From Roridomyces roridus (lineage: Eukaryota > Basidiomycota > Agaricomycetes > Agaricales > Mycenaceae), in NCBI GenBank assembly GCA_029378245.1, contig JARKIF010000004.1:1736001-1800000 (forward strand): a stretch of DNA of 64,000 nucleotides. Direction: 5' to 3'. A program made the translations under genes and the position numbers. Every line of letters starts with the position of its first letter. The first letter of the stretch is position 1. Positions 21,560-54,979 of the stretch are shown one piece after another. Under the pieces are notes generated by a model that was not told the origin of the DNA, did no database searches, and was given only the letters and a program-made list of their open reading frames with translations.

Positions 21560-23010
21560 CCAAGACCTGTAGCACACATGAGCAAGGAACAAGCCTTGCT
21601 GCGAAGACGAACCTGCAACGTAACCTCGGTGGGGTCACCAGTGTCATTTTGCTGAATCGTTGCGACATTGCAGAGAGAGGCGACACGAATGGCAGGGATA
21701 GAATCCGGATCTACCACTGCCCCGTTGTCGCCACGTTTATGAATGTCTCCAACAGGCTCGGATGCGTCTGACGCAGTGCGGCTGCTAAGTTTGTATCCTT
21801 TGGCGTCGCCAACGAGCCACATTTTTCGCACGGACATTTTGCCTATTGCAGAAAGTTAGTGGCGGCTAGCAAGAGAGGATCAGGGATATGTACCGAGGGC
21901 CAGGGTACCAGTCTTGTCGGTGCAAATGTCCGTGACTCCACCCAGATTCTCAAGCGCATCGAGCTTGCGGACAACAACATTGCGTTGGGCCATCCGTCGG
22001 GTACTGAGCGACATGGTGGGCGTCAAGATGACTATTAGCGACTCGGGAACGATGCCGACAGCGACAGCGATTGCCTGCCAGAGACAGTCAGATACACGAG
22101 GTGGAAGAAGACCAAGGAACGCACATAAATCATGACCTCCTCCGTGATCTTGAATTTGGCCACCGCAAAGACAACGAGGGCAAGCAGGAAGGCGCAAAGA
22201 ATAGTACATAGGCGAGCTTGGTCAGCTTGCGCTGCAACGGAGTGCCCTTGCGGACACCGCTGTAGACCAAAATCATTTCCTTGATGTGGCTGAAAAAGGA
22301 AAGACCGCTGTTGTCGTCTTTGTTATCGTTCATAGCATCTGCGATACGTCCGATTTGAGATGACATGCCAGTGGCCACGACGATGCCTGATCCGAGTAAC
22401 AAATGTTGAGGCGGTCCCCTAGAGGTAGGTCCGCTTCCTTGAATGTTTCAATGAACTTGACAACTGCATCTGTGTAAGCAAGAATTTGGGACAACGAGCC
22501 AAGTTGCTTATCGGGAATGGATTTATCGGTGAGCAACTGCTCCGAAACTCCGAGGTTGGACACGATGAAAAGACGAGCCTGCAAAGGCGCACTCAGTGAC
22601 ATCAAACGACAACGAAAACGAAAGACGCACGTTCGCGATGACAAGGTCTCCGGCTTTGATTTGGCCGACGTCGCCGGGAATAACTTGATTTGCAGGCACG
22701 ACAGTGAGCTGGCCATCGCGCATGACGATGACGGTTAGCAAAGAGAGCTGGCGGAGGGAGTTCATAGCCTGTCCGCTCGGCCTTGTCTTGGAGGAATCCA
22801 ACTCTAAGAGGACGAATCAGCGACAGTAAAAGTAGAGGGAATTACGCCGGCAATAAAACTCCAGCGCACCCACGAGGACCAACTGTAAGGCTGAAAAGTC
22901 AGTCTTGAAGACGGTGACCTGAGCAGGCACTCGCCCTAGAAGTAGCGAATGCCCTTACCACCGAGAGCGTTTTGAGAGCGTTGTCGCCGTATCGCGTGAG
23001 ATGGTGAAAC
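21560..23010 (-). pseudogene. ENA-type (IID) P-type cation ATPase, decayed and truncated
   Basis: Fungal ENA ATPases export Na+ or K+ across the plasma membrane. Minus-strand exons carry AMNSLRQLS and VIPGDVGQIKAGDL, LPLGDRLNICYS, GIVVATGMSSQIGRIADAM, GTPLQRKLTKLA, VAVGIVPESLIVIL and the phosphorylation site ICTDKTGT (near 21904-21930), then TGDPTEVTLQV. The frame shifts near 22770 and again near 22390. The dephosphorylation motif T-G-E is replaced by LLTDKS (about 22520). The cytoplasmic nucleotide-binding half and the GDGxND hinge are missing, because homology ends at the adjacent MITE. It is a pseudogene. Confidence 0.8.
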
Positions 23011-23709: not shown

Positions 23710-24243
23710 TGTTATGTCCCGTTCCAACGCCAACTCCGGTACCTCAACTCCGGTACTCAACTCCGGTACTCAACTCCGGTCACGTCGGGATGCCTCCCGA
23801 CGTCGAAGCACATCACGCGCTCCTCGGTTCTATCCGGGTACTCGGGTTTTCACGCGATGAAGGTATCTGAGCGTTTCCCCCGGACTTGGTATTCATCAGG
23901 ATATCCACTTGATCATTCCGTGCGGACTTAATCAGCTTATATCCACATAGCCGCATAAGTCCGTTTCTATTATTGGTCTGTGGTAATGACATATATCTCT
24001 ACTTACTCGTATATAAGACTTTCCTTATCTGTATTCAACCTTAGTTGATAATTGACGTTCTTGACTACTCGTCTTGGCTGGTTCCTACTCCTTCCCTTCC
24101 TATCAACATAGCAAGGCGTCTTTGACACCCTACTCCTCTGTGGTGCTCTTAGATCGTTCCTCCGGTCGACTCCTTCCAACTCCGGTCACTACCGGAGTTC
24201 CGGCATCTACTCCGGACTTGTCTTTTGGAATCGGATCGTAACA
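23710..24243 (+). repeat. 5' LTR of Gypsy-1 (534 bp)
   Basis: Begins TGTTATGTCCCG and ends GATCGTAACA. It contains tandem AACTCCGGTACTC units, a TATATAAG box near 24009, and the palindrome CGG-TCACTA-CCG at 24183-24194. From about 24010 to the end it matches the 3' LTR exactly by eye; upstream of that it differs at many sites. Confidence 0.95.
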
Positions 24244-24270: not shown

Positions 24271-26587
24271 ATGTCTAACTTACCCCCTAATCAACCCAAC
24301 CAACCTCCCAACACGGATCAACGCATACACATTCAAGACAACCGGCTTTCTGAGGACTCCGCGGCAATTGACAATAGACGTAGACGCCAGTCTACTATAT
24401 TCGCTCAAATTCCGTTGATCGTTCGTCCTTCGATACAAAACCCGGTTCCACCGATCCTACAAACCCCCCCTGCTGCGACGGGTCAGTTCTCGATCCCGCC
24501 GTATGGTCCTTACCGAGATCGGTTCGTTCCGTCTCCCGGTTCAAATTGGGACCCAAACTTACCTCCTTTGCCTAATTCCCCGTCTCGTTCCGCCGGTGGT
24601 TTGGCCCGGAACACTCCGGCTCAAAACCAATCCACTGCACAGCGCTATACCATCCCCATGAATTTCCCGATTTCACCGTCCGTTCCCCGGTTCCAAAACC
24701 GCGAACCGACTTCGGCTTCAATTCGGGAAGTGCGCGCGGAAGAGCATATCGCGGATTTGTCTCGACAATTGGCTGAGTCACGCCTTCACGATGATGAATC
24801 TGACGATGGAATTCCTCTAGTTCTACCACGTCCTAACTTCGAACCTATGGGCACTATTCCGGAGAACTCTCGCTTCGATGACTGGTTTAACAACCGGCGC
24901 AACTATACCACCGACGAACACTATCTTGCTGGGCTTCAACGCTTTGAAGCCTTACACCCTTGGGAGTCCATTCAGGTACTCCGGTCAGACGATGGAATGT
25001 CTAACCGGGAGTATGGACGCCATCCCGCGCAAGTTCGTTTTGGTGCTTATCGCGCCTCCGGCGTAGGAATGCGTCCGGAGCCAGCTCCAGCAGGTACTCA
25101 AGCTCGTCCCGGTGATTCGGATGACGAAACGGATCCGCTCAGCCATAGTTCCTCCGTTCATCAGGGCGGTCCTCCGGGACCACCAGGTGGATATGGAGGA
25201 GGTGGCCCTCCTGGTGGCGGCCCTCCGGGGCCCCCGGAGGTGGATTTCCAGGTGGTGTGCCTCCGGGCCCTCCATATGGCGGTGGTGGTGGAGGTGGCAA
25301 TCCCGGTGGTGGACCCCCTGGAGGATATCCAGGTGGTGGAAACCCCGGTGGAGGAGGGGGCGGAGGCGGGCCTCCTGGGGGATTTCCCGGGGGATTTTTT
25401 CCTCCTGGCGGTCCTCCCCAACCTGCGCCTGGCACTGATCCGTACATGGCTTACATGATGTATGAGACCGCCCAGGCGTTTAGGGACGCTGCTATGCAAT
25501 TCAGAAACCCACCTGCTCAGAGGTCGGGACGGTCAAACCTTCGGAATCCGGACCCATTCGATGGAGAAGATCCTTCAAAGCTGCGTATATTCTACACGCA
25601 GTGTTCTCTTCATTTTGGAGAACAACCACAGGACTTCGTCACGGACTCGAGCAAGATTATCTTCGTGATCTCATACCTCAAAGGTCGCGCGCTCTTGCAC
25701 TTCACTCCGGTGATCAAGTCCCAGACACCTCCGGAATGGGACGACAATTGGGCTGCTTTCTCGCAGGAACTCTTCAACTGCTTCGGTCCGGTCGATCCGG
25801 TCGGGTCGATCCGGTCGGAGACGCCCAGGAAGAGGTCCTCGATCTCCACATGGCCAACAACGAGACCATTATCGACTTCCATCTCAAATTCGACACTCTT
25901 CGGCCTTACCTCCCTTGGTCGGATGAGAACCTCAAGTTCATGTACTATCGTGCGCTGGCTCTTCGTCTTAAAGATGACCTCAAGACTGCGCGCTACCCCG
26001 ACACGTACATTGGACTCCGCACTGAGGCTACTCGATTGGATTTCATCTACTGGAAGTTCGAGAAGGAGAGGCAGAGAGAGCGGGAGAGGAAGAAGCGGAT
26101 GGGCGGTGGTGGAGGTTCTGGCTCCGGTTCCGGTAACGACAATCCGAAATCCGGCAACAACGCCAAGAACACCAACTCCGGTAACTCGTCTGGCAACTCC
26201 GGTTCCGGCAACTCCGGTAACCCCGGTAATACGTCTGGTCAGCAAAACCGCAAGGGAAATCCTAGGAAGGATTCAAAAAATCCCTCCAGTAACAACAACG
26301 CTGCCCAGACCAATCCGGCTCCCAACAAGAATCCGCCCCCGAAGAAGGCCAAGCCCTATGAGAAGAATCTCACCCAGGGTGGTAAGCTGAAGCAGGAGGA
26401 ACGGGATCGCCGCAAGGCGAACAATCTCTGCATGTACTGCGGAGAGGCAGGTCATCAGGTGTCCGATTGTCCCAAGCGGACTACTCCGGTCGCTGGCCGT
26501 GGGTCTCAGACCACTCCGGCCCCTGCTGCTACAACTCCCGCTCCCGCAGCCCCTGCGTCGACAACCCCGGCCGCGCCAAAAAATTAG
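24271..26587 (+). pseudogene. gag: Gag of Gypsy-1, two frameshifts
   Basis: Starts MSNLPPNQPNQPPNTDQRIH. It then has a long Gly/Pro-rich stretch, the capsid-like region (DPFDGEDPSKLRIFYTQCS, later HMANNETIIDFHLKFDTLRP) and a CCHC zinc knuckle CMYCGEAGHQVSDC near 26430-26471. Gag forms the particle that packages the element RNA. The frame breaks twice: in the Gly/Pro repeats near 25230, and near 25800 where GTCGATCCGGTCGG is repeated in tandem (14 bp). The copy could not make full-length Gag. The gag stop at 26585-26587 lies right after the sequence A-AAA-AAT. Confidence 0.85.
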
Positions 26588-26689: not shown

Positions 26690-27211
26690 TGTAATATCCG
26701 TGCCGGAGGGTAAGGACAAAGGGGCCGGAACCTGAGGTCGGAGGTCGGAGGTCGGAGGTCAGAGGTCGGAGGGACGTAGACCGAGGGTGATCCGGATGAG
26801 GTGAACGCTACTCGGAGGGAGAGCGCACCAGCCACTTGACTTCCGAGAGAGGAGTACTCGGAGACTAGATTGGCACAGAGGAATTGCGGAGGCAACACAC
26901 GTTAATTAACTACTGACGTACATCACAATCGTATGTCCTATTTATACTAAGTAAGTATGACACGATCAAATGGAGTCAGAAGCGCGAAAGACAATAAGCT
27001 CTATGTTAAACAATAAGAAAGAAGATGATAAAGATAATCACAATAAGGGAAACGCTCAGAACGACTTCATTGCGTGAAAACCCTATCGGATTGTGCAATA
27101 CGACGAATCGGATGCATCATTGGTCGGAGCGTCCGGAACAGTCGGAGATGTTCCGGACCGGAGGTGGTCGGAGGATGTCGGAAGGACGGGGTTGGTGACA
27201 TGGATATAACA
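26690..27211 (-). repeat. 3' LTR of Gypsy-2 (522 bp)
   Basis: Contains a tandem GGTCGGA run near 26730-26770 and the inverted repeat TCCGGAACA / TGTTCCGGA (27132-27140 and 27149-27157). It lies about 140 bp upstream of the start of the antisense Zn(II)2Cys6 gene, so it may serve as that gene's promoter region. Confidence 0.95.
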
Positions 27212-27350
27212 GTATCCCCCTCTTAGGGTTCCTTGACCCCAAGGAACGAGACACTGTTCATAAATGAGCGTGGGAAACAATTGTTGGAATCATGACGAGA
27301 TGAAACACGTGACTGGTTGGTTGATCAAAATCTCTTTGTCCTCTACCACC

Positions 27351-28934
27351 ATGAGCGCCCCGCCGGACCCCTCAAACAGCAAAGGCAAAGCCAAAGCAAC
27401 GGCCGCGCAGATCGCGCAAGACGAGCTGGACAGCGTCCAGCAAGATCTCAACACGGTGCTCGCCGACGACCCGGAGAACGAGGAGGGGAGTGGAGAAACG
27501 GCGGAGGAGCGCGCAGAGCGTCTCCAAGCGCGCAACGACCTCATCGCTCGCCTCCTTTCTCGCAACGACGAGGTTCAGGCGGAGGTCGACGAGGCGGAGC
27601 GGAAGACGCAGGAGCTGAAGGAGAGGCTGGAGAAGGCGAGGGCGGTGGCAGCGCGTCTGCAGGCGGAAGCGGAGGATCCTGACGCCGAGGTAGACGCCAT
27701 GGAGTATCTCCATGACGTGATGTCTCCTCGGAGGTCGGAGGTCGCAGACCAGACGGCGTCGGAGAGTTCGGAGAAGCCGGAGAGTGACGCGGAGGTCGGA
27801 GGAAAGCGGAAGATGAAGGGGAAACATTCCAGTGCGTCGCAGTGGATTTTTTTTCGTTTGAGTTTTTTATTGATTTCCTTTTCAGAATGCGAGGGATGTG
27901 AGCAGGCCGGGGTCCCCTGTCGTACCCCGAAGAAGGGCCGTGCGTGCGACAACTGTCGCCGCCAGAAGGTCAAGTGCTCGCTGCTGCCGGAGGGTCTCCG
28001 ACCGGTGATCTACCGGCCCGGAGGCGGTCGGAGACCGCCCTCGAAACGGGCCCGCAAGGACGCGGCGATCTTCAAGCCCGAGGACGACGACGACGATGAC
28101 GACGACGACGAGAAGGATTCGGATGAACCGGAGGTCGGAAGTTGGCACGGTCGGACTCGACGCCAGACCAGGGTTGCCGAGGCGTCGAACGCCGAACCAT
28201 CGGTCCAGACTCGGCTGGACCAACTGGAGTCGTTTGGGGCTGCCCTGAGTCAGGGGTACCTCATCATCCAGCCCACCGGGGCCGGACTGATGCTGGATGC
28301 ATGCCGGACGCTGCTCACGCAGCTTGGCTATAGCCCACCGACGGTTCCGAAGAAGGCGACGCCGGAGAAACCGGAGCCCCAGTCGGAGGATGAAGAGGAA
28401 GGGATGGGACCCGTCGGTGAGGACACCGCGATGCCGGACATCGCCCACCTGTCCGAGCAGGACGACAAGACGCCCGAGGAACCGGAGGCCGTGGAGGTAC
28501 CGGAGGATCTGCAAGACGTCGATATGGTGCCGGCGTCGTCTCCGGTGGAGATTGCGGAGGGTCCGGTACCTACGCTCGTGGCGGTGAAGGTGGAGGATGA
28601 GGAAATGAACACGTGGTTCCTGGAGAACGAGGAGCGTAAGCGCAGGGCGAAGGAGGAACGGGAGGAGAGGAAGAGGAAGCTCTTGGCTGAGCAGGCGGAG
28701 AGGGAACGGCAGCGCCAGGAGGAGATCGATAAGGCTGCCGCGGAACTCGCAGCTCTCGACGCGGAGGAGGATGAGTTGGGAGTCGGAGCGTCCGGAGCGA
28801 CGCCGATGGAGGGCGTGAAGACGGAGGAGTCGGAGCCGGTGGTGCCGAGAGCGCCGGTGAAGACAACGACGGAAGTCCAGAAGGACGCGGAGGGGAAGGA
28901 CAAGGAGGTGATCGTCATTGAGGACGACGATTGA
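27351..28934 (+). CDS. Zn(II)2Cys6-cluster protein encoded antisense within Gypsy-2
   Basis: Predicted 509 aa, two exons (27351-27831 and 27886-28934) joined by a 54-nt GT-AG intron. The N-terminal third is a Glu/Lys/Arg-rich coiled coil (about residues 25-115). The second exon opens with C-E-G-C-EQAGVP-C, eight residues, then C-D-N-C-RRQKVK-C, i.e. C-x2-C-x6-C-x8-C-x2-C-x6-C. This matches the Gal4-type binuclear zinc cluster, which in known fungal factors binds CGG triplets. A poly-Asp run and a second charged coiled coil (residues about 400-470) follow. It is transcribed from the LTR side toward the end of pol (convergent, 91 bp apart). The host family is DNA-binding regulators; a role for the element is inference. 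Gypsy-1 has a shorter relative. Confidence 0.75.
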   Translation: MSAPPDPSNSKGKAKATAAQIAQDELDSVQQDLNTVLADDPENEEGSGETAEERAERLQARNDLIARLLSRNDEVQAEVDEAERKTQELKERLEKARAVAARLQAEAEDPDAEVDAMEYLHDVMSPRRSEVADQTASESSEKPESDAEVGGKRKMKGKHSSASQWIFFRLSFLLISFSECEGCEQAGVPCRTPKKGRACDNCRRQKVKCSLLPEGLRPVIYRPGGGRRPPSKRARKDAAIFKPEDDDDDDDDDEKDSDEPEVGSWHGRTRRQTRVAEASNAEPSVQTRLDQLESFGAALSQGYLIIQPTGAGLMLDACRTLLTQLGYSPPTVPKKATPEKPEPQSEDEEEGMGPVGEDTAMPDIAHLSEQDDKTPEEPEAVEVPEDLQDVDMVPASSPVEIAEGPVPTLVAVKVEDEEMNTWFLENEERKRRAKEEREERKRKLLAEQAERERQRQEEIDKAAAELAALDAEEDELGVGASGATPMEGVKTEESEPVVPRAPVKTTTEVQKDAEGKDKEVIVIEDDD

Positions 28935-29024: not shown

Positions 29025-29704
29025 TTATAGAGCAGCCCACTCAGGTCCCGGTTTGGTCGGATACTGTTGGTGAAACTCCGCGAGGAGCTCCGGAGCGTCC
29101 AGGTCGGAGGCTCCGACCCATTGGTATTGGTCACCGGTATCTTGCCAACCAGTCCATTCGACGTAATAGCGAAGAGGACAGCGCCGGAAGCGTCTGTCGA
29201 TCTTGGAATCGAGAATCGCCGCAAGTTCGTAGTGTTCCTCGCCGTCGATGATCTCGACGGCTCCAGGAGGAATTTCGGTGCGTCCCGGAAAGGGGTTCGG
29301 AAAGTGCGGTTCAAGAGCCGAAATGTGGAAGACGGGGTGAATGCGAGACAAAGCCTTCGGAAGTCGGATGCGGTAGGATCCGCCGGAGAGTTTCTCGAGG
29401 ACCTCGAATGGACCGAAGTGCGTCTCGGAGAACTTCTCGGTGGGACGAGTCGTAGCGATGAATTCGGCGGAGATGAAGGCCTGGCTTCCGACCTCAAGAA
29501 CGGGGTCCGGAAGGCGTTTGCGGTCAGCAATCTCTTTATAACGCTCCGTAGCATATGTGAGTTGCGTACGGAGATATTCGTGCACCGATTCAAGCTTGAA
29601 TGCAAAGTCCTGAGCTTCCGCAGCTCCCGGACCGAGGACGGAGGTGGTCCGGAAGGTGAGTGCCGGATGATAGCCCTTGTTGCCAAAGAACGGTGAGACA
29701 CCGG
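29025..29704 (-). pseudogene. pol: 3' end of Gypsy-2 pol (integrase tail and chromodomain)
   Basis: Reads PFFGNKGYHPALTF, then the integrase C-terminal barrel (SQAFISAEFIATTRPTEKFS, RIHPVFHISALEPHF) and a chromodomain-like end (PLRYYVEWTGWQDTGDQYQW, closing PGPEWAAL). It is separated from the rest of pol at 43730-46965 by the KDZ element. Chromodomains of this class steer integration toward chromatin marks. Confidence 0.85.
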
Positions 29705-29759
29705 CACCCGTAGCTGTACTAGAAAGCATACGCTGCTGGTTGTAGCCAGGATTTCCGAT

Positions 29760-30325
29760 TACTATCTACCTGGACCCAGCCAGGCCGTGGCTAGGTGCTT
29801 GTTCCCTATATTCCACTGCATATTGGCCGTCTCCCGCTGTTTGTGTGTATATTCCTTCTGACTGTCAGTGACTGGGTAACTCTCCCTCGGCAAGCCAATC
29901 AGTTGTACTCAGATCAATGGATTTTCGATAATGATACAGTGATTTGATGTACGTCCGAATATGGTCGACTCAACGCCCAAGTCCCAATATAGTAATTCCG
30001 CGACACCGCTTGCGCATCGCATCGTCGATGATGCGTAGGGCCCCGCAACCGACGCCAAAGAGAGGCGGATCTGCGCGCCTCCCGCCACCGCTTCGCTTTA
30101 ACCGCTGCCGCCTTTGATGGCGCTCCCGCTCTCTCCCGGCTCGCGATGTGCCACAGCCGCACGGCTGCGGGTACGCGGCCCTTGGCACACCTCCTCCCCC
30201 TCCCCCTCATCCTCCTCCAGCTCCAGCAACCCCACCGCGGGCGCGGTGTCCATGGCATGCCCATCAAGGATCTCCTGGTAGACGGTCCCGTCCTGTCACA
30301 CAGCCTCCTTCACCGCAGTTGCCAG
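29760..30325 (-). other. Region downstream of the transposase stop, possible lost tail
   Basis: The transposase frame can be read beyond its TAG (30326-30328) for roughly 80 more codons with one further stop (TGA about 30299). It includes YQEILDGHAMDT and an acidic stretch LLELEEDEGEGEE. This suggests a former longer C-terminus. Otherwise nothing is seen. Confidence 0.4.
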
Positions 30326-42837: not shown

Positions 42838-43729
42838 CCGTCACACCTCCCCGTCCTACTTACTTTGATTCTTGGCTCGCGACTTGTTTCCTTCTGTCTG
42901 TAGTACGTATCTACTTTGCTTAGTGCGTATCTACTTAGATTTGTGTCAATGAATGGACTTGGCTGCCGTGTCTCTGCTTTGTGATGGCTGACTTTGGGCT
43001 GACTTGTGAGCTTCTCGCGATACGGATGAAAGACAAAAACGGCATCAAAGGTGGATTTTCTCGTACTACGGTGGAAAGACATCTCGCAGTATGGTAGAAG
43101 ACACATCGTCGTAAGATGGATACAGCAATGCCCAAGAAATGGGTGGTGAAGATGGATGTATGGCGCGGGAATGCAAAAATTAAGGAGGCAGGCGGAGCCG
43201 TGATGGGACGGTAATGCAAACACAAGCAGAGCGGTCAACAGAGAAGTGGTCGGTGAGCGAGGAGGAGGGGGGGTGGGGCGGGAATGCAAAAAAAAAAAAA
43301 AAGAGGCAGGTGGAACCGTGATGGGACGTACTGGAAAGGCAGGCAGAGGAGGAAGCGGTCAGGGCGGGGAACAGGCTGGGCGGGGAGCAGGCGGGGCGCG
43401 GCGGGAGGCGGGGAGCAGGAGGCGGGTGCAGAGGAAGCGGGTGCAGTGGAAGGGAGCATCATCTGCGCTGCTGATTGGAACAACGAAAAGGGCCTGATTG
43501 GCGGCAATGGATTAATATACCAATTGGGATGATTAAAAACAACCCAAAAGGGGCATTGCAGTGGCCTGGACCCGGTCCATCAGCCATCCAGAAAGGGTCC
43601 ACGTGATAGAAGACGGATAAAAGACATGCGCATGGCTGTAGCCACGCCGGTGGCTAGGTTCATGTAGAATGTAAACCTGTCCAGTGGCTACATCCAGGGT
43701 ACATTGTCTTTATATTACAGCTACGGCTC
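42838..43729. repeat. Right end of the KDZ element with imperfect tandem repeats
   Basis: No gene. An imperfect tandem repeat (GCGGGAATGCAAAAA ... GAGGCAGG ... CCGTGATGGGACG) occurs twice at about 43160-43215 and 43278-43330, followed by a purine-rich GGGGCGGGAACAGG stretch. Subterminal TGGCTAC/GTAGCCA motifs lie near the terminus. Confidence 0.5.
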
Positions 43730-46700
43730 ACACCGGTGGAGGCGTTCGGAGCGTTGTTGAGTGCGAATTCGGCCAAGGGCAGAAGATCAGCCCAGTCGTC
43801 CTGGTGGTACGCACAGTACATCCGGATGTATTGCTCGAGGGTTTGGTTCATGCGCTCGGTTTGACCGTCGGCCTCCGGATGGTGTCCGGAGGTGAAGTGC
43901 ATCGTCATGTTGAGGATTTCACCCAAGGCTCTGAAGAAAGCAGAAACGAATTCAGTGCCGCGATCGGAAGTGACATACGAAGGGACACCGTGTTTCGAGA
44001 AGACGTGGAAGAGGAAAATCCGAGCGAGTTGAGCGGAGGTGATGTGTCGGTCGCAAGGTGCGAGGATGACCTGTTTGGAGGATCGATCCACGATCACACA
44101 AATCGCGTCGTATTCGCCGGAGTATGGCAGGAACTCGATAAAGTCGATAGAGATCGAATGCCATGGTCGGAGGGCGACCGGAAGTGGTCGGAGTAGGCCG
44201 TAAGGCTTATGCCGAGGGGATTTGTTGCGTTTGCAGTGTGTGCAGGAATTGCAGTAGTCGCGGACGAATGTACGCATCTCCGGCCATGAGTACTCATGTC
44301 GGACGAGCGCTAGGGTTCGATTCTGTCCAAAGTGACCAGCGAGAATGTGATCATGTTTATTCTGCAACACACGTACTCGGAGTAAATCAGGCTTGTCGCC
44401 CGAAATCTTCGGGACAAAGATCCGCTTGTTGAGAAGCAGAAGTCCGGTGGGATCTAAAGTCCAACGCGAAGTGCCGGAGGTGTCGGAGGTCGCGGCTTGA
44501 AGGCCGGACACCGCGGCGGGATCGTCAGGATAGTGAGCCCGAATATCGCTATGCAGCGAGTCGGTATCCATGACGGAGGATGCTCGGAGGCAGATCTCCT
44601 CGAGTAGCGTGGCGTTGAGTGATGCCGTGAGCTGATCCGAGGAAAAAATGGGACGGAAGTTCTGAGGATTAATCGAACTGAAGGCCGTATCCCCCTCTTT
44701 CGGATAGACGTCCCAACGACGGGTGAGAGCGTCCGGTTTGCCTCCGAGTTTTCCGGGTCGAAACCGGATAACCATATTGAAATGGTTGAGGAATTTGGAC
44801 CAGCGTATTTGTCGACGAGTAAGGGTTTTAGTCGTAGCGAAGTATTCCAGATTCTTGTGGTCCGTGACGACGTCGACAGGATGGGTAGCGCCCTCTAGGT
44901 ATTGACGCCATTTGGTGAAGCAGTCGAATATAGCCATGAGTTCCTTGTCGTGCGTGTCGTAGTTGAGCTCCGGAGGAGTGAAAGTGCGACTCCGGAACGC
45001 GACGGGGTGGAACTCCCCGTCGTCTCCGAGGATGGAGAGAATGCCCGCAAGAGTGTAGTCGGAGGCGTCGGTTTCGACCATAATTTGTCGGCCCGGAACC
45101 CAGTGATGGAGTACCGGAGAGGTTGTAAACGCCTTTTTGAGGGTGTCGAAAGCGGATTGGCAGGCAGTAGTCCAGTCCCAGCGCTGACCGGAACGTGTCA
45201 GGCGGGTAAGAGGGACGGTGATGCCGGAATAGCCGTAGATAAAACGCCGATAAAAGTTACAGAACCCAAGGAACGACTGAACGTCCTTGACCTTCCGGGG
45301 AGTAGGCCAGTCGGTGATCGCGGAGATCTTCTCCGGAGACATGCGGAAACCGTCCGGCGAAAGAATGTAGCCGAGGTACTCGCAAGTGGTGACGGAGAAC
45401 TCGCACTTCGGAAGCTTGCAGTATAAGCCAGCTTTCCGGAGGCGTCGGAGGACTTCTCGGACGTGGGCGGTGTGGTTTTTCGGATCGTCAGAATAGATGA
45501 GAATATCATCCAAGTAGACGACAACGTACACGTCGAGAAGGTCCGCAAATAGCGTATTGAGGAACCGCTGGAAGGCAGCCGGGGCGTTGGAAAGGCCCTC
45601 CGGCATAACCCGGAAGTTGAAGGAACCATAGCGAGAACGCCAGGCGGTTTTGTACTCGTCTCCGGCAGCGATTCGGAGAAGATGATAAGCATGCCGGAGG
45701 TCCAGTTTGGTGTAGATCCGAGCTCGACCGGGAGCATCGAGAAGGTCGGCGATGAGGGGAAGAGGGTAGCGATCCTTCTTGGTGATGCGGTTTAAACCCC
45801 GGTAATCGACGCAAAGTCGGAGACTCCCATCCTTCTTCTTAACGAAGAGGATAGGGGCGCCGTGAGAGGAATCTGAAGGATAGATGCGATCAACCTTCAG
45901 ATTAAAGTCAATATACTCTCTTAGCGCTTTTAATTCCGTCTCCGAGAGCGAGTAGATGGGTCCGACCGGAGGTTCCGCCCCGTCGATCGTCTCGATTTTG
46001 AGGTCGAATTCGGGACGATGAGGGGGCATGGTGTAGGACTCCGATTCGGAGAACACGTCGGCGAAGTCGTGGTACTCCGCAGGGATACCGGAAAGGTCCG
46101 GAGCTGCGGAGGAGCTGAAGCCGCGGGTCTCCGTAGTCGGATTGGCCTGAGCTTGGATCGAAAACTGGATGTTGGATTTATCGCGTAGCAAGACGCTGAA
46201 TGCTGCAGCGCCGACAAGTGACACGAGCGGGACGGTAGTGAACGGTCGAGGTGTAGATACCTCCGGGAGATCCTGAGCCGGAGCCGTCGGAGACGGAGCC
46301 GGAGTCGGAGAAGGGGCCTTCATAGAAGAAGCAGGTCCAGGCGAAGACGTCGGCGGTGTTGCCGGGACAGGAGTCGGGGTTGCCGAGCTGTCCGACAGAT
46401 CCGTAGTCGGAATGACCGCAACAGGAGCCGGAATAGTATCCGGAGGTGTCGACACACAAGATTCGCTGTAAACAGGGCTGAACTGTAGGGAGACCGAGCG
46501 CCAGTCAATCGACGGATTGTAGCGGCGTAGCCAGTTTAGTCCGAGCACCATGTCGCAAGCGGAATCCAGACGGGTGACGTAGTATTCCATGAAATGGACA
46601 TCGCCGGAGGGGAATCGAGGAAGCAAGGTGATTTGCTGATCGATGATGGATGAGGAGCCGTCGAGATACCGGAGGCGAGCTGGATCAACCGCATACGGAG

Positions 46701-46965
46701 AGAACCCTTCGGATTCGTAAAGTCTAGTCGAAAGGAAGCTATGAGAAGATCCCGAGTCGATAAGAGCACGTAAGCGGGAGTTGAATCCCGCGGCTACTCG
46801 TTGTACAAAATCCGGAAGCAGGGTTACGCCCGCTTCGGGATCGGGGAAACCAGAAAGTACACCAGAACTAGATATAAAGTCCGTAGAAACAAGAGAGAGG
46901 TCAATATCGATATAGAATGCATTAGGAGAAAGAGTGGACGCATTGAGAGTAATCTCCGGTAACAC
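43730..46965 (-). pseudogene. pol: Gypsy-2 pol, protease to integrase core (5' part)
   Basis: The aspartic protease motif DSGSSHSF lies near 46740-46765. RT follows (YTKLDLRHAYHLL near 45700, catalytic YLDDILIYS near 45505), then RNase H (ETDASDYTLAGIL near 45070) and integrase with its HHCC finger (HDHILAGHFGQNR, then CTHCKRN) and DDE residues (SIDFIEFLP, TSDRGTEF, HPEADGQTE). Reverse transcription and integration of the element depend on it. The frame is intact until the KDZ element interrupts it at NNAPNASTGV; the rest is at 29025-29704. The frame opens upstream in the -1 frame of gag. Confidence 0.9.
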
Positions 46966-46977: not shown

Positions 46978-47024
46978 GCAGCTCGGAATGGGTGACGGAG
47001 TGTCCGAGCCGCTGACTATTTTTT
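46978..47024 (-). promoter_or_regulatory. Candidate -1 frameshift signal, gag/pol of Gypsy-2
   Basis: On the minus strand six A (47024-47019) precede the gag stop TAG (47018-47016). A stem then forms between GCGGCTCGGA (47012-47003) and TCCGAGCTGC (46987-46978), ten pairs with one G.U. The pol frame is -1 to gag, as in Gypsy-1. The slip site reads G-AAA-AAA, less ideal than in Gypsy-1. Confidence 0.6.
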
Positions 47025-49007
47025 CGGATCAGCGGTTCTGGCGGGAACGGAGGCAGCTGGAGCGGCCGGAGCAGCCGGAGCCACCGGAACTGGCTCGGTA
47101 GTGCCAGCACGTCCTTGAACGCCACCCGGACGCTTCCGGCAATCGGAAGCCTTGTGACCTGCGCCACCGCAGAACATGCACAGGTTGTTCTTGATGCGGC
47201 GCTCGCGCTCCTCCGGCTTGAGCTTGCCGGAGGCGTCGAGCTTGTTGGCATAGGGTTTGTCGGAGGCGGAGCCGGAAGCTTGACCCGCATTACCGGTTGT
47301 GGGGGGAGCCGGAGGAGTCATCTTGTTCGGAGGGCTGGGATTACCCTGCCGATTCTTCCCTTTGCCGCCCTTCTTCCCTTTCCCGCCGCCAGATGGTTCG
47401 GAGGAACCGGACCTGGGCGAATCGTTCGTCGGAGCCCTCGGAGTCGTGCTCTTGACCTTCGCGGCGGCAGCGGCGGCGGCCAAACGCTCAGCCTCCTTCT
47501 CCGCCTGACGACGGTGAAAGCGCTGATCGAGCTGGGCAGCGAGAGACTTGAGTCCGGCAAGAGTGGTCGGCCGGACAGTCTGAGCGATGGAGTCCTTGAT
47601 GCGGGAAGGGAGACCACGGTAGAACGCGTGGATGAGGGCCGCCTCGTTGAAGCCGGTCATGACCGAAAGGTTGTCGAATTCGAGCTGGTAAACAGCGAGT
47701 CGATCATTCGGCCGCATCGACAAACTCTCCAGTCCGATCCGAGCGTCTCCGAAAGGATCGTGCGGACCGAAGTTGTTGGCCAGCTCCTGGACAAAAAGGT
47801 CCCAGTCTCCGTCCCAAGCGGGGATCGGAGTTCCGGCGGTAGCGTAGATGTTCGGAGAGAACCATTGCTGAGCCGTACCGCGCAAGTAGGACCGGACATA
47901 GAAGATCTTCTCGTCGGAAGACGGGAAGTCCTGTGGACGTTCAGCGATGTGCAAATAAATCTGCGACATGAACGTAGCAAATTTCGAGGGATCGGAGCTG
48001 TCGAAAGTGTCCGGAGCCTTGGAAGCAGTGCGAGTAGACCGAGGAGGAGCCGCTGAATTCTGGGCCAGGAGAGTCATCGCCTGAGCAACTTGCTGCATGG
48101 CGACGTCGAGTTGGGGGTTGACCGGAGGGATGTATGCAACACCCGGAGGTCCCAGAGGACCTTGTGCACCTTGGGGACCCTGAGGACCGCGAGGTCCAAG
48201 CGGAGGGACCGGAGGATTCCAGCCCCCACCGCCTCCTCCACCACCTCCACCACCGCCACCACCGCCACCTCCGCCACCTCCGCCTCCGCCTCCGGGTCCC
48301 GGAGTTCCCGGAGGGGGTGGAGTATTCCCGTGATGGGAACCGGACGGAGCTGGAGAATTACTGTGGTTGCTGGGGTTGCCCGGTGGACCAAAGAGACCAG
48401 GGGAACCAGCAGACGGAGGACGATTTGTCGGAGGACGAGTAGGAGGACGGGTTGTAGGAGGACGCGTAGTCGGAGGACAAGTGGCCATGGCATGAGACCT
48501 GACCGAGACCGGTGAACGAACCGGAACCGGTGGCTCGTTAGCGTACTCCAATTCATTGACCGCAGACTCAGCTACTTCCGCGATGGGAGTGACGTTTCCC
48601 AAAGGTTGGCGGTATTCTCCGTGAGCCCGGAAGGGAGTCGGAGAGTAGATTTCGTGAGTCGAGCGCTGGTCGTAGTCGGTCATGCCCGGAACCGGAGGAA
48701 AATTCGGGTCGGGGTAATTTGAGGACGCATGGGATTGTCCCGAATGGCGACGAAGAGCAGCACCCTGTTGGTTCGGAGGGAGCGAAGGCCGAGTCCAAGG
48801 CATCGGATTGTTGGGCCGAGGACGGAAAACATCCTCCTCGAAGTGAGGTTGAGACCGAGTGGGAATGTCGTGAGGAGAGATAATCCCCGAAGCGTTTTCC
48901 AAAGTGACGGATTGACCGGGTGCCTGGAGAGGAACCATCGTGGACCATAAGCGAGATCGTCGACGGTCCTGCACCTGAGGCGTGGTTATGAGATTGTGAT
49001 ACGACAT
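47016..49007 (-). CDS. gag: Gag of Gypsy-2 (intact)
   Basis: 663 codons on the minus strand, start MSYHNLITTPQVQDRRRSRL. It has a Pro-rich N-terminal third with a long Gly run, then the capsid-like region (DTFDSSDPSKFATFMSQIYL, FVQELANNFGPHDPFGDARI, HAFYRGLPSRIKDSIAQTVR) and a CCHC knuckle CMFCGGAGHKASDC near the end. Gag builds the particle and binds element RNA. It ends DPKK at a run of six A before TAG, the presumed frameshift point into pol. Confidence 0.9.
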   Translation of the reverse strand: MSYHNLITTPQVQDRRRSRLWSTMVPLQAPGQSVTLENASGIISPHDIPTRSQPHFEEDVFRPRPNNPMPWTRPSLPPNQQGAALRRHSGQSHASSNYPDPNFPPVPGMTDYDQRSTHEIYSPTPFRAHGEYRQPLGNVTPIAEVAESAVNELEYANEPPVPVRSPVSVRSHAMATCPPTTRPPTTRPPTRPPTNRPPSAGSPGLFGPPGNPSNHSNSPAPSGSHHGNTPPPPGTPGPGGGGGGGGGGGGGGGGGGGGGGGGWNPPVPPLGPRGPQGPQGAQGPLGPPGVAYIPPVNPQLDVAMQQVAQAMTLLAQNSAAPPRSTRTASKAPDTFDSSDPSKFATFMSQIYLHIAERPQDFPSSDEKIFYVRSYLRGTAQQWFSPNIYATAGTPIPAWDGDWDLFVQELANNFGPHDPFGDARIGLESLSMRPNDRLAVYQLEFDNLSVMTGFNEAALIHAFYRGLPSRIKDSIAQTVRPTTLAGLKSLAAQLDQRFHRRQAEKEAERLAAAAAAAKVKSTTPRAPTNDSPRSGSSEPSGGGKGKKGGKGKNRQGNPSPPNKMTPPAPPTTGNAGQASGSASDKPYANKLDASGKLKPEERERRIKNNLCMFCGGAGHKASDCRKRPGGVQGRAGTTEPVPVAPAAPAAPAASVPARTADPKK

Positions 49008-49035: not shown

Positions 49036-49557
49036 TGTAATATCCGTGCCGGAGGGTAAGGACAAAGGGGCCGGAACCTGAGGTCGGAGGTCGGAGGTCG
49101 GAGGTCGGAGGTCGGAGGGACGTAGACCGAGGGTGATCCGGATGAGGTGAACGCTACTCGGAGGGAGAGCGCACCAGCCACTTGACTTCCGAGAGAGGAG
49201 TACTCGGAGACTAGATTGGCACAGAGGAATTGCGGAGGCAACACACGTTAATTAACTACTGACGTACATCACAATCGTATGTCCTATTTATACTAAGTAA
49301 GTATGACACGATCAAATGGAGTCAGAAGCGCGAAAGACAATAAGCTCTATGTTAAACAATAAGAAAGAAGATGATAAAGATAATCACAATAAGGGAAACG
49401 CTCAGAACGACTTCATTGCGTGAAAACCCTATCGGATTGTGCAATACGACGAATCGGATGCATCATTGGTCGGAGCATCCGGAACAGTCGGAGATGTTCC
49501 GGACCGGAGGTGGTCGGAGGATGTCGGAAGGACGGGGTTGGTGACATGGATATAACA
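49036..49557 (-). repeat. 5' LTR of Gypsy-2 (522 bp)
   Basis: Same length and nearly the same sequence as 26690-27211, including the GGTCGGA tandem run and the TCCGGAACA/TGTTCCGGA inverted repeat (49478-49486 and 49495-49503). The start codon of gag is 29 bp away. Confidence 0.95.
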
Positions 49558-49562
49558 CCTTT

Positions 49563-52500
49563 ACATTTTACTTTTTCTATCTCTACTGCGCGCGGACTAT
49601 GTATCTCTGGACGAGCGTGAACTAGGCGTAACCCTAGGCTCGTCCGATGTATCGAGGCAACTTGCCGAGGGATTCAACTCCCATATTAATGCGCTCATGG
49701 ACTCCGGTTCATCGCATTGTTTCGTCTCAGACAGGTTCTGTGACAAAAAGGGTTATCTCCCTTATTCTGTACCTCCGGTCAAGGTGCGGTATTTGGATGG
49801 CTCGTCCTCGATCATTAACCGTCAGATCCGGCTGCTCATCCGGTTTCCTTCCGGCGACGTCCATTTAATGGAATTCTATGTCACCCGTCTTGATCCTCCC
49901 TGCGACATGGTCCTCGGATACAACTGGCTTCACCGCTACAATCTGTTGATTGACTGGAAGAATGCTAGTATCGCTTTCCGGACCACATCCAATGGGAATC
50001 TTGTGTCGACACCAACTCCGGTCGAGTCTCTCTCCTCCGGTTCTGGGACCCCAACTCCGGTCCCGACTCCGACATCGTCGCCATCGACCACAGCTCCTTC
50101 AGAGCAACATTCCGAGGCCACCGAGCCTCGTCCATTCATTACTCCACCAAAAATCTCTCTGGTCTCTGCTGCAGCTTACCGTTCTATCCTCAAGGACAAG
50201 GACGTCCAGCAGTTTACGATGCAGGCCCAACCAAAGGAAGAAGTTACTGCCAAGTCCGGTTCCCTAGAGGATCCGGACCTGTCTAAAATTCCTTCGGAGT
50301 ACCATGACTTCGCTGACGTATTTTCAGAGCAGGAAGCGTACAACCTTCCTCCTCACCGCGAGAACGATCTCAAGATCGAAACCATCGACGGCGAAGTCCC
50401 TCCGGTCGGGCACGTCTACTCCCTTTCGCAATCCGAGCTCGCTGCACTCCGCGAGTTCATCGACAAGAATATTCGCTCCGGATTTATTTACCCGTCCCGG
50501 TCGAATCATGGAGCTCCTATCCTTTTCGCCAAGAAGAAGGATGGTTCGCTCCGACTCTGTGTCGATTACAGAGGTCTCAACCGCATCACGAAGAAGGATC
50601 GTTATCCTCTTCCATTGATTGCTGACCTCTTGGATGCTCCGGGAAAGGCGCGTAGCTATACCAAACTTGATCTTCGGCACGCTTACCATCTTCTCCGAGT
50701 TGCTGAGGACGATGAGTCCAAAACTGCATTTCGGACTCGCTACGGCTCTTTCAACTTCAGAGTCGTACCGGAGGGTTTATCTAACGCTCCGGCGGCTTTT
50801 CAGCGCTTCCTGAATAGCCTGTTCGCGGACTTGCTTGACGTTTACGTCGTTGTCTATTTGGATGACATTCTGGTTTACTCCGGAGACGAAACTCAGCACA
50901 CAGCGCACGTACGGGAAGTACTCCGGCGCCTCCGGGCCTCCGGTTTGTACTGCAAACTCCCCAAATGCGAGTTCGGTGTAACAACGTGCGAGTACCTCGG
51001 CTATATTCTCTCTCCGGATGGATTCCGGATGGCCGAGGAGAAGATTGCGGCGATAATGGAATGGCCGGTCCCACGCAAAGTCAAGGACGTTCAGTCTTTT
51101 CTTGGCTTTTGCAACTTCTACCGTAGATTCATCTGGAATTACTCCGGTATCACGGTCGCCCTGACACGCCTCACGCGTAAGGGCTTGAAGTGGGACTGGA
51201 CCTCCACCTGCCAAGACGCGTTTGAGACGCTCAAGAGGGCTTTCACCGAAGCTCCGGTTCTCCATCACTGGGTTCCCGGCCGTCAACTTACGGTCGAAAC
51301 GGACGCTTCAGACTACGCTATCGCCTCCATCCTATCAATTCAAGGAGACGACGGCGACATCCATCCCCTCGCATTCCGGAGCCGGACTCTGCAGAACGCG
51401 GAGCTCAACTACGACACCCACGACAAGGAACTCCTCGCCATCTTCGACGCTTTCGAGCATTGGCGCCAATACCTTGAAGGAGCTCCTCTTACAGTGGATG
51501 TTGTCACCGACCACAAGAACCTGGAGTATTTTGCTACCACAAAGACGCTTACCCGTCGACAGGTTCGCTGGTCAGAGAAACTCTCCGCGTTTAATATGCT
51601 CATCCGGTTCCGTCCTGGACGGCTTGGGGGAAAACCTGACGCGTTAACTAGACGATGGGACATCTATGCTAAAGAGGGGGATAGGGATTATGTTCAGGCC
51701 AATCCGCAAAATTTTCGGCCAATTTTCACCTCCGAACACCTCTCCGCGTCACTCCGGGCGACATTTCTTGAAGAAATCGTACTCCGGTCATCGGTCGTTT
51801 TGGACGTCGAAAAGCTCTACTCTGACATCCGGACTCATCTCTCCGAGGATCCTCACGCCCTTGCGGGTCTGGAACTCGCTAAAACCGGCACCAACCCTCG
51901 CTGGACGACAGACGAGGCTGGCTTACTCCGCTTAGACGGACGAATCTATGTTCCCTCATGCTCCGGTTCTTCACCGGAGCTCCGTGTACGTGTTTGCCAG
52001 TTTAAGCATGATCATATTCTTGCTGGTCACTTCGGACAGAACAGGATGCTGGCTCTGATCCGGAAGGAATTCACTTGGCCAAATTGTCGCGACTTCGTCA
52101 AAGACTATGTCAAGTCCTGCGTCACGTGTGCAAGGAACAAGAAGCCCAGGCACCGTCCTTACGGTCTCCTGAAACCCCTCCCAGTGCCTCTTCGTCCTTG
52201 GCATTCGATATCCATGGACTTCATCGAGCAACTTCCGGCCTCCGGCGAGTACGATTGTATTCTTGTGATCGTTGATCGTGCTTCGAAGCAGGTTATCCTC
52301 ATTCCCTGCGACGTTCACATCGACTCTCCGAAACTCGCCCGGATGTTCCTCATTCACGTTTTCTCCAAACACGGAGTTCCGGCACACGTCACTTGTGACC
52401 GGGGTTCCGAATTCATATCTTCCTTCTTTCGTTCTTTGGGCGAACTCCTCGACATGAAGATCCATTATACTTCGGGTTACCATCCGGAAGCTGATGGTCA

Positions 52501-53287
52501 AACGGAACGGATGAACCAGACGGTCGAGCAGTACATCCGCATTTACTGCTCTTACCAACAGGATGATTGGGATACACTCCTTCCTCTTGCTGAATTCTCG
52601 TTGAACAACGCTCCTAACGCCTCCACAGGCATTACCCCGTTCTTCGCGAATAAAGGCTACGATCCCCTCCTGTCCGTCCATCCAGAACTCAACGTCGCCA
52701 ACACATACGCTCGCGACTTCGTGGTCAATCTCAACGAACTCCACGAGTTCCTCCGGGACCAAATCCGGTCTGCACAAAGTACTTACAAGGAAACGGCGGA
52801 CCGGAAACGCATTCAACATCCGGACATCAAAGTCGGCGATGAGGTGTTCATTTCCACCAAGTACATCAAGACCAAGCGTCCAACTCCGAAGTTCTCGGAG
52901 ACGCACATCAGTCCGTACAAGGTTATTGGAAAACCTAGCGCTGCCTCGTTCCAGGTGCGACTTCCAAAAAATCTGTCCCAAGTTCACCCAGTTTTCCATG
53001 TTTCTCAACTCGAACCCCACTTCCGGAATCCCTTCCCCGGTCGAGAAATCCCTCCACCACCTCCGGTAGAGGTCGACGGCGAAGAGCATTTCGAGGTCAA
53101 ACAAATCGTTGACTCCAAGCTCGACCGGAGGTACCGGATTAAACTCCGGTACTTGGTCGAATGGATGGGCTACGAGAACACGGATGAACAATTCACATGG
53201 GTTGGAGCAGACGACATACAGGCAGGTGAGGCGTTGGAAGACTTCCATCGTCGATATCCCGACAAGCCTGGCCCATTACAAACCTAA
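49563..53287 (+). CDS. pol: Gypsy-1 pol: protease, RT, RNase H, integrase, chromodomain
   Basis: The frame is open from the Gypsy-2 junction to the TAA at 53287. Order: aspartic protease (MDSGSSHCF at 49697), RT (YTKLDLRHAYHLL near 50660, YLDDILVYS near 50855), RNase H (ETDASDYAIASIL near 51297, DHKNLEYF), integrase finger (HDHILAGHFGQNR, CVTCARNKKP), integrase DDE (SMDFIEQLP near 52213, TCDRGSEF near 52393, HPEADGQTE near 52480), and a chromodomain (LRYLVEWMGYENTDEQFTWV near 53140). I see no stop or frameshift in it, but its first codons are cut off by Gypsy-2 and its partner gag is broken, so the copy cannot act alone. Confidence 0.9.
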
Positions 53288-53429: not shown

Positions 53430-54428
53430 TCAATCCTCCGCCAATTCGTCGTCACCGTTCTTCGCCGTATCCGGACTCGACGCGATCTCGGGCTCGGTCT
53501 CCACCGGTGGAATCATTTCCTCCTCCGACTTCTCGTCGTCATCCCCCGGCAAGAACAAGGGCTCCTTAGCCCCCTCCGGTCCCTTCACCTCATACTCCTC
53601 CGGATCGACGTTCATGTCGACCATACCCTCAACATCCCCATCCTCCAACTCCATTCCGGACCCCTCAGGCTCCTCCGCCTCGGCGTCCATCTGGATCCCA
53701 GTCCACTCCTCTTCGTCTTCATCTCCAACCGACTCCTCTCCTCCCTGCCTCGCCTTCCACGCCTCCAGCTCTTCCTCAAAGACGTGTTGGCGTCGATCCT
53801 GCTCCGCCTGCCTCCGAGCCTCTCTGGCATCCGCATCCTCGGCCTCCTCGTACATCGAATTCCCATGGTCGTTGTCCCAATCGTCTGAGACACGATCCGG
53901 AGTTACGGGGCGAGGGTCGACGGGAGGCGCGGGAACGACGTCCTTCGGCTCATCGCTGAAATCCATCAAGTCGTTGTCATCCTCAACGACTCGACGAGCA
54001 AGGCGAGGCCTCTTGACAGGCACGGGGGGAGGCGAGACCGAGATGGAAGACGATTGAGCACGCCCACGTTTGGGCGTGACGGAGACAAGAGTGGAGGGGA
54101 CGAAGGGAGAGGTGCGGGGTTTTCGGATGGTGACGTTTTGCTTTTTCCCACGCTTGGGAGGTGGTGGTGGTGGTCCATCCGTCCTTCTGCACGCGATCCG
54201 CTTCTGCCGGCACAAATCGCAGGCGCGAGCCTTGACTCCGCCGGAGTTGACGCAGGTCGCTCCGAGACGCCGACAGTTGTCACAAGCTGAAAAGAGAAGA
54301 TGAGTAAAATTAAAAACGAAGGAAAATCACTCACCTTCGTTTTCCTCGTCGTCTCCAGCGACGGAATCCACTACCTCCGGCGTCTTCGCGCGAGCCTTCC
54401 CCTTATCCTTCCTCGGCTTCTTCCTCCG
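53430..54428 (-). CDS. Zn(II)2Cys6-type protein encoded antisense within Gypsy-1 (N-terminus missing or in LTR)
   Basis: Two exons on the minus strand: an upstream part ending at 54335 (KKPRKDKGKARAKTPEVV, then acidic DDEENE) and 54286-53430, joined by a 48-nt GT-AG intron. Exon 2 starts C-D-N-C-RRLGAT-C, ten residues, then C-D-L-C-RQKRIA-C, the Gal4-type zinc-cluster spacing. A basic segment, then an acidic tail (DDNDLMDFSDEPKD, EELEAWKARQGGEE) follows. The intron sits at the same place relative to the cluster as in the Gypsy-2 gene. No ATG lies between the LTR and the first exon; the frame runs into the LTR, so either the start is in the LTR or the N-terminus was deleted. Confidence 0.65.
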
Positions 54429-54979
54429 TGTTATATCCCGTTCCAACACCAACTCCGGTATTCGACTCCGGTACTCAACTCCGGTACTCAACTCCGGTAC
54501 TCAACTCCGGTCAGACGTCGGGATGCCTCCCGACGTCGTAGCGCATCACGCGCTCCTCGGTTATAACCGGGTATTCGGGTTTTCACGTGATGAAGGTATC
54601 TGAGCGTTTCCCAACCGGAGTTGGTATTCATCAGGAACATCCACTTGATCTTCCCGTGCGGACTTAATCAGCTTATATCCACTTTGCCGTACAAGTCCGT
54701 TTCCACTACTGATCTTGGTAATGACATACATCTCTACTTACTTAGTATATAAGACTTTCCTTATCTGTATTCAACCTTAGTTGATAATTGACGTTCTTGA
54801 CTACTCGTCTTGGCTGGTTCCTACTCCTTCCCTTCCTATCAACATAGCAAGGCGTCTTTGACACCCTACTCCTCTGTGGTGCTCTTAGATCGTTCCTCCG
54901 GTCGACTCCTTCCAACTCCGGTCACTACCGGAGTTCCGGCATCTACTCCGGACTTGTCTTTTGGAATCGGATCGTAACA
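54429..54979 (+). repeat. 3' LTR of Gypsy-1 (551 bp)
   Basis: Mate of 23710-24243, with one more AACTCCGGTACTC unit. The part after the TATATAAG box (near 54745) is identical by eye to the 5' LTR; the part before it differs at roughly two dozen sites. The CGG-N6-CCG palindrome is at 54919-54930. Confidence 0.95.

What the first reader, a model, noticed from the sequence alone, without database searches (positions are those of the whole stretch)
27351..28934. A Gal4-type zinc-cluster gene carried antisense inside Gypsy-2
Seen: a two-exon frame antisense to the retrotransposon, between pol and the 3' LTR, with C-x2-C-x6-C-x8-C-x2-C-x6-C. Known: this spacing defines fungal Zn(II)2Cys6 DNA-binding clusters. 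LTR retrotransposons normally encode only gag and pol. Inference: the element carries its own transcriptional regulator or silencer, driven from an LTR-side antisense promoter. The Gypsy-1 counterpart (53430-54428) keeps the cluster and the intron position, so the gene looks selected rather than a chance capture.
Basis: partly seen in the sequence, partly recalled or inferred. Interest (0 to 1): 0.85.

Follow-up and report, generated by a model that had tools for sequence, protein, structure and literature searches.

The report
Antisense zinc-cluster gene in fungal retrotransposons
Two related fungal jumping genes each carry, on the opposite strand to their usual genes, a spliced extra gene for a probable DNA-binding protein; natural selection has kept it intact in the family with enough differences between copies to tell, which suggests that the element carries its own regulator.

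Summary
Confirmed and extended. Window 27351-28934 (+) is a two-exon gene antisense to Gypsy-2 (G2), between pol and the 3' LTR. Gypsy-1 (G1) has a counterpart; the window's G1 copy has lost about 800 bp of its 5' part, other G1 copies have not. Across 18 G1 copies the frame is under purifying selection (dN/dS 0.29), splice sites hold, and all six cysteines are kept (17 of 17 copies spanning them). G2 copies are too similar to test. The protein has a Cys6 motif of canonical spacing whose halves look swapped relative to GAL4-type clusters; the intron splits the codon before the first cysteine in both families. Antisense genes at this position are known in plant LTR elements and in Botrytis Boty; my searches found none with a zinc cluster. 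New: CTCCGG/CTCCGAC-type words, holding the CGG core classic for zinc clusters (recalled), are enriched along both elements with family-specific flanks and form arrays in their LTRs, but a relative without the gene is enriched too. Most likely the protein binds and regulates its own element; whether as activator, anti-silencer or repressor is open. No transcript was seen.

The parts
27351..27831 (+). G2 antisense gene, exon 1 (coiled-coil-like N-terminus, basic stretch before the intron)
   Evidence: weak coiled-coil Pfam hits below cut-off
27832..27885 (+). G2 intron (predicted), 54 nt, phase 1, GTGCGT...CAG
   Evidence: GT kept in 10 of 10 and CAG in 10 of 10 copies spanning it, with 1-3 nt length changes
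27886..28934 (+). G2 antisense gene, exon 2: Cys6 cluster, basic tail, acidic C-terminus; stop at 28934
27888..27977 (+). Zinc-cluster-like motif CEGCEQAGVPC-RTPKKGRA-CDNCRRQKVKC
27212..27350 (+). 5' leader of the antisense gene, between 3' LTR/PPT and ATG (ACCACCATG context in G2 and in G1 copy L030)
   Evidence: sequence
26690..27211 (-). G2 3' LTR (TGTTATATCC...GGATATTACA), with CTCCGAC repeats
49036..49557 (-). G2 5' LTR
47016..49007 (-). G2 gag (Ty3_capsid, Retrotrans_gag)
43660..46965 (-). G2 pol, 5' part (PR, RT, RNase H, IN), broken by an insert
29025..29729 (-). G2 pol, 3' part (SH3_Tf2-1, chromodomain); 90 bp lie between its stop and the antisense stop
53430..54286 (-). G1 antisense gene, exon 2 (Cys6 motif from 54284 downwards)
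54287..54334 (-). G1 intron (predicted) GTGAGT...CAG, phase 1, same codon position as in G2
54335..54428 (-). Remnant of G1 exon 1; the rest (about 800 bp with the leader) is missing in this copy
54429..54979 (+). G1 3' LTR with tandem CAACTCCGGTACT units
23710..24243 (+). G1 5' LTR
24271..26587 (+). G1 gag region (zinc knuckle), in more than one frame
49697..53287 (+). G1 pol with chromodomain

Best explanation
An accessory antisense gene of a clade of fungal chromodomain Ty3/Gypsy elements. Shown: the gene exists between pol and the 3' LTR in two families, has a predicted intron at the same codon and phase, and in G1 is kept by purifying selection, most strongly over the stretch with the Cys6 motif. 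Modelled: a helix of about 80 residues (G1 exon 1), dimerising by inference. Inferred: the mRNA starts near or in the 3' LTR and is spliced; the protein enters the nucleus (basic tracts beside the cluster) and binds CCG/CGG-core words, which are enriched along both elements and form arrays in their LTRs; bound there, it sets the element's own transcription or chromatin state. I favour an element-serving role (activation or anti-silencing) over pure self-repression, because a gene that only represses its carrier would be hard to keep; repression for copy-number control or latency is not excluded.
For: Selection: G1 NG86 dN/dS 0.29 (bootstrap 0.23-0.35), variable columns by codon position 119/113/216, 0 of 18 copies with an in-frame stop when laid on the reference; composition-matched permutation omega 0.51, 0 of 1000 as low, and 0.25 over the 61 codons with cluster and basic tail; shared changes omega 0.41, private 0.67; five pairs between exon-1 alleles 0.29-0.33 at dS 0.58-0.63, their exon 2 0.09-0.26 at dS 0.11-0.26. 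Cysteines kept in 17 of 17 G1 and 10 of 10 G2 copies spanning them. Coding indels of copies without frame breaks are multiples of three, intron indels mostly one or two bases. DNA-binding lead: the second half matches Zn_clus positions 1-14 at 26.6 bits; basic PxKRxxK tail in all 9 rows aligned; helix 37-117, pLDDT 94-98 over residues 41-110. Target lead: TCCG/CGGA ranks first of 136 tetramers in G2 gag, G2 pol and the G2 antisense CDS and second in G1 pol and the G1 antisense CDS under synonymous-codon shuffling; G1 prefers ACTCCGG, G2 CTCCGAC.
Confidence: 0.55

Rival explanations
1. Same gene, opposite sign: the protein represses or tempers its own element (copy-number control or latency), as HBZ is held to temper HTLV-1 sense transcription (recalled).
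For: Same gene place and orientation as antisense retroviral genes; papers compare plant antisense ORFs with HBZ (PMC11963269 passages; PMC7264820). LTR arrays of the words could be repressor sites.
Against: No repression data; a pure self-repressor must bring another benefit to be kept by selection. Nothing here separates sign.
Confidence: 0.2
2. The protein acts in the replication cycle rather than in transcription: nuclear import of the pre-integration complex, cDNA or RNA binding, or target choice.
For: Plant antisense ORF proteins are discussed in this sense (PMC7264820). The CTCCG words lean to the sense strand in G1 and G2 (for example TCCG 60, CGGA 33 in G1 pol; 44 and 6 in the G2 antisense region), as an RNA-borne signal would.
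Against: The words are nearly strand-balanced in family A pol (67 and 59). Coiled coil plus Cys6 cluster is the build of fungal DNA-binding factors (recalled).
Confidence: 0.15
3. The antisense RNA, not the protein, is the product: dsRNA or interference with sense RNA.
For: The antisense gene lies between pol and the 3' LTR, so a full-length sense RNA would be complementary to its mRNA (sequence); antisense RNAs limit Ty1 (PMC7175516 passages).
Against: dN/dS near 0.3 and frame-specific constraint, conserved splice sites, indels in threes.
Confidence: 0.05
4. A captured host gene carried along without use, or a chance open frame.
For: G2 copies alone cannot exclude neutrality.
Against: Present in two families whose pol C-termini are about 60% identical; searches of the own genome with both proteins list no row that looks like a host gene, though flanks were not read for every row; G1 selection.
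Confidence: 0.03

Closest known systems
Antisense additional ORFs between pol and 3' LTR (aORF-3R) of plant Ty3/Gypsy elements: Grande gene23, RIRE2, Retand (TRP28 domain)
   Same: Position, orientation, presence in many copies of a family, suspected nuclear or DNA-binding role (PMC7264820 parts 1-2 of 3 read; PMC11963269 passages)
   Different: No zinc cluster mentioned in what I read; TRP28 is described as apparently confined to flowering plants; host kingdom differs
brtn of Boty in Botrytis cinerea
   Same: Antisense gene in a fungal chromodomain Gypsy element (PMC7264820; PMC8365987 and PMC4227169 passages)
   Different: Ascomycete host; the brtn protein was not compared (original paper not read); no zinc cluster mentioned in the passages read
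HTLV-1 HBZ
   Same: Antisense gene at the 3' end of a retroelement, nuclear protein (PMC11963269 passage); action on transcription recalled
   Different: bZIP (recalled), unrelated protein; works-like only
VANC anti-silencing proteins of Arabidopsis VANDAL elements
   Same: Element-encoded protein whose short, same-direction target motif is dense in its own family and forms tandem arrays (PMC5735166 passages)
   Different: DNA transposon (recalled), unrelated protein; motif lies mainly in non-coding DNA there, in coding DNA too here; binding untested here
Fungal Zn(II)2Cys6 (GAL4-type) transcription factors, PF00172
   Same: Cys spacing, one basic CxxCRRxKxKC half, helix and acidic regions
   Different: Order of halves swapped; cluster lies mid-protein with the long helix before it; retrotransposon-borne

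Membership tests
aORF-3R (antisense extra ORF between pol and 3' LTR) | ORF antisense to gag-pol, between pol stop and 3' LTR | tested here: met
aORF-3R (antisense extra ORF between pol and 3' LTR) | Present in many copies of the family and conserved like a coding gene | tested here: met
   G1; for G2 presence in copies met, selection inconclusive
aORF-3R (antisense extra ORF between pol and 3' LTR) | Antisense transcript from its own promoter | not testable with these tools
   no RNA data
Zn(II)2Cys6 cluster (PF00172) | C-x2-C-x6-C-x5..12-C-x2-C-x6..9-C | tested here: met
Zn(II)2Cys6 cluster (PF00172) | Profile match over the whole domain in order, above the cut-off | tested here: not met
   Swapped half matches; full G2 exon 2 below the 21-bit cut-off (17.8 and 20.5 bits), short G1 and G2 pieces 15-28 bits; host control L004 matches 1-35 in order at 41.6 bits
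Zn(II)2Cys6 cluster (PF00172) | Two-zinc fold | tested here: inconclusive
VANC-like self-recognition | Family-specific motif dense in the own element and rare elsewhere | tested here: inconclusive
   met for G1/G2 against one pol each of families B, C, D and the rest of the window, but family A without the gene is enriched too
VANC-like self-recognition | Protein binds the motif; silencing is lifted | not testable with these tools
   needs EMSA or ChIP and methylation data
HBZ-like | bZIP domain | tested here: not met
   no bZIP profile among the Pfam hits; works-like comparison only
Boty brtn | Sequence relationship to brtn | not tested
   brtn sequence not on hand

The most novel reading that the evidence does not exclude
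A self-recognition system in a fungal LTR retrotransposon: an antisense gene encodes a long-helix protein with a half-swapped zinc cluster whose family-specific CCG-core target word (ACTCCGG in G1, CTCCGAC in G2) has been accumulated through LTR, gag, pol and the gene itself beyond what protein and codon usage explain, so that the protein marks its own element's DNA, while its N-terminal module exists as two co-circulating alleles 21-23% apart in elements that mostly differ by 1-3% elsewhere, as if tracking a host partner. Family A would be a cheater or orphan target using the word in trans.
Probability: 0.18. Interest if true: 0.88.

Novelty: new variant of a known kind. Interest (0 to 1): 0.62.

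Why it matters
Antisense extra genes of LTR retrotransposons are described in plants and in one fungal element with no function shown in the review I read (PMC7264820). Here is a case in a fungus with a recognisable DNA-binding motif, measurable protein-level selection, and a candidate target word with family-specific flanks that can be tested by one gel shift. If the protein acts on its own element, fungi would offer an easily handled system for retrotransposon-encoded self-regulation, and the half-swapped cluster would widen what counts as a Zn2Cys6 factor.

Tried and rejected
Protein collection: G2 exon 2 (7993 candidates scored, none at E 0.001) and its first 80 residues (2967 candidates, none at E 10); the full spliced protein and G1 were not searched (3 of 3 searches used, one on pol). 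Viral contigs with pol and with a pol alignment: no relative. Phage records: no match. Metagenome contigs were capped at 0 and not tried, so the gene in other species is untested. A degenerate group (L025-L028; 53-54% identity over 64-68 residues) carries what looks like a G2-like cluster remnant in broken frames and is not used as evidence. Sibling C312 (pol 77%) has only a short antisense frame after pol and no cluster pattern and is not counted. Exon-1 model against PDB: nothing useful. Coiled-coil Pfam and NCBIfam names (Spc29, TonB, Rad50) are taken as compositional. The reverse frame that shares third positions also looks constrained (omega 0.58), as expected from codon geometry; the other four wrong G1 frames give 1.32-1.65.

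Rows dropped: 18 of 20 G1 loci and 13 of the 16 loci L009-L024 entered the selection counts; L046, L047, L019, L020 and L023 were left out as further pieces. The pattern check finds the cluster in 30 of 36 loci L009-L024 and L029-L048 and in 0 of 12 other Gypsy loci. L010 and L011 score alike and may be haplotypes of one insertion; without gaps they differ at 107 of 4044 places.

Full report
OBSERVATION. The gene is there as described. On the + strand ATG 27351 opens a frame to the stop at 28934; a predicted 54-nt intron at 27832-27885 splits it into 481 and 1049 nt, giving 509 aa. It lies antisense to G2, between the pol stop (29025, - strand) and the 3' LTR (26690-27211). The polypurine tract borders the LTR, and the leader and ATG follow it. 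G2 (TSD AAAGG) is inserted in G1 (TSD AACCT), whose own antisense gene lies between pol (stop 53287) and its 3' LTR. The zinc-cluster pattern occurs twice in six frames of 64 kb, only in these genes, and never in 40 shuffles.

The window's G1 copy is truncated: its LTR joins the gene directly, whereas other G1 copies such as L030 have about 800 bp more, holding most of exon 1. The full G1 protein (copy L030) is 534 aa. G1 and G2 share the plan: an intron of phase 1 in the codon just before the first cysteine, Cys6 motif, basic tail, acidic C-terminus; a long N-terminal helix is modelled for G1 and only hinted at for G2. Outside the cluster the two sequences barely align (the one clear local match is 32% over 59 aa, E 1e-5).

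SELECTION. In the own genome, 20 matches were listed for each protein. Laid on a reference, 18 G1 copies (several partial) show no in-frame stop; 5 carry frame-breaking indels (L032, L038, L039, L041, L043), the other coding indels are multiples of three, and intron indels are 1-2 nt. Splice GT and AG are kept in 17 of 17 G1 copies spanning them (one has GTGATT, the rest GTGAGT) and in 10 of 10 G2 copies; 13 G2 copies gave one with an in-frame stop and four with frame breaks or a large deletion. G1 dN/dS is 0.29 (0.23-0.35). Matching each change to sites of the same base and CpG state gives omega 0.51 (0 of 1000 permutations as low), 0.25 over the 61 codons with cluster and basic tail, 0.53 for exon 1, 0.57 for the C-terminus; changes to a stop codon are 3 against 13.9 expected, and at least one of the 3 is a change between terminators. 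Changes shared by copies, which have more likely passed through replication, are more constrained (0.41) than private ones (0.67); G1 pol shows the same contrast (0.13, 0.53). G2 copies differ too little: NG86 0.62 (0.41-0.96), permutation omega 0.88, not significant, while G2 pol gives 0.43 (32 of 1000 permutations as low).

TWO ALLELES OF THE N-TERMINUS. G1 copies mostly differ by 0-3% in the LTR and 1-2.5% in the 3' part of pol, but exon 1 comes in two forms 21-23% apart (3 of 11 copies aligned carry the second; a protein search finds 5 copies of it at 97-100%), and exon 2 differs by up to 10%. L036 has a foreign stretch at its far pol end, and L041 an LTR about 5% from the others. Between the forms dN/dS in exon 1 is 0.29-0.33 at dS 0.58-0.63 in the five pairs computed, so both are constrained proteins. 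No donor family appears in the genome search; recombination with a relative not found here, or diversifying pressure, are both open.

A CANDIDATE TARGET WORD. TCCG/CGGA is roughly 2.5-6 times denser in the parts of both elements (23-48 per kb) than in two other stretches of the window (8-9 per kb). Keeping protein and codon usage fixed, it is the most enriched of 136 tetramers in G2 gag (61 against 35.5), G2 pol (102 against 61.3) and the G2 antisense CDS (47 against 32.1), second in G1 pol (93 against 58.3) and the G1 antisense CDS of L030 (34 against 22.0), and weak in one G1 gag frame (26 against 20.4, rank 9). One pol each of families B, C and D, without the gene, shows none (z -0.5, 1.0, 1.1); family A, also without it, shows it strongly (126 against 81.0). 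The window's truncated G1 antisense region is not above dinucleotide expectation (26 against 21.3 +- 4.2). Flanks differ by family: ACTCCGG at 2.5-3.5 per kb in G1 gag and pol (1.1 in the L030 antisense region) against 0-0.75 in G2; CTCCGAC at 2.5-5.0 per kb in G2 gag, pol and antisense region, and 2.6 in family A pol, against 0-0.6 in G1; the same words form arrays in the respective LTRs. That CGG is the usual half-site of Zn2Cys6 proteins is recalled knowledge. The word leans to the sense strand in G1 and G2, which leaves an RNA role open. Family A, whose LTR follows pol directly, is the main evidence against tying the word to this gene.

DISTRIBUTION. Of other Gypsy groups (letters A-D are mine) I read the 3' region of 3 copies of A and 1 each of B, C and D: no zinc-cluster pattern; most listed copies were not read. 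Named pol relatives elsewhere include Mycena venus and Lentinula edodes, so the host is probably an agaricomycete; it is unnamed here.

KNOWN AND NEW. Antisense ORFs between pol and the 3' LTR are an established class in plants, with a fungal case in Boty (PMC7264820, parts 1-2 of 3 read; PMC11963269, PMC8365987 and PMC4227169 passages). A survey of fungal LTR elements had no occurrence of 'antisense' or 'zinc finger' in its text (PMC3248453, term search). Nine searches of the open library bearing on the question (subscription papers mostly missing; a tenth was on VANC) gave no report of a zinc-cluster antisense gene in an LTR element, judged from the listings and the few papers opened. VANC proteins offer the closest logic: a short own-family motif, dense, same direction, in tandem arrays (PMC5735166 passages).

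VERDICT. A real, selected antisense accessory gene with a predicted intron, most likely a DNA-binding regulator of its own element; the sign and mechanism are unproven.

Noticed in passing
window 16267-20789 and 59478-64000: Two 4.5-kb arms, 100% complementary, facing each other around the nested elements and running to the window's end: a recent inverted duplication or an assembly artefact.
   Followed up: no
window about 29730-43650: Insert of about 14 kb in G2 pol with a KDZ transposase domain (31633-32220, -, E 1.5e-34): a third level of nesting. Its ends were not resolved.
   Followed up: partly
L034, L035, L041 against L030, L031, L033, L036-L040 (exon 1): Two exon-1 alleles 21-23% apart in G1 elements that mostly differ by 1-3% elsewhere.
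   Followed up: partly
G1, G2, L055, L065, L066: CTCCGG/CTCCGA words enriched along three related Gypsy families, one of them (A) without the antisense gene; A has 73-bp LTR repeats with the same words.
   Followed up: partly
L025-L028; L053 678-1143: Degenerate elements with a G2-like LTR (87-94% over the long matches) and what looks like a G2-like cluster remnant in broken frames; a G2-like LTR also lies behind a family C pol.
   Followed up: partly
window 21883-22209: Fragment of an E1-E2 ATPase gene beside G1 (below the Pfam cut-off).
   Followed up: no
C125 and C458 copies (L010, L011): Copies with equal scores on two contigs, possibly two haplotypes of one insertion.
   Followed up: no
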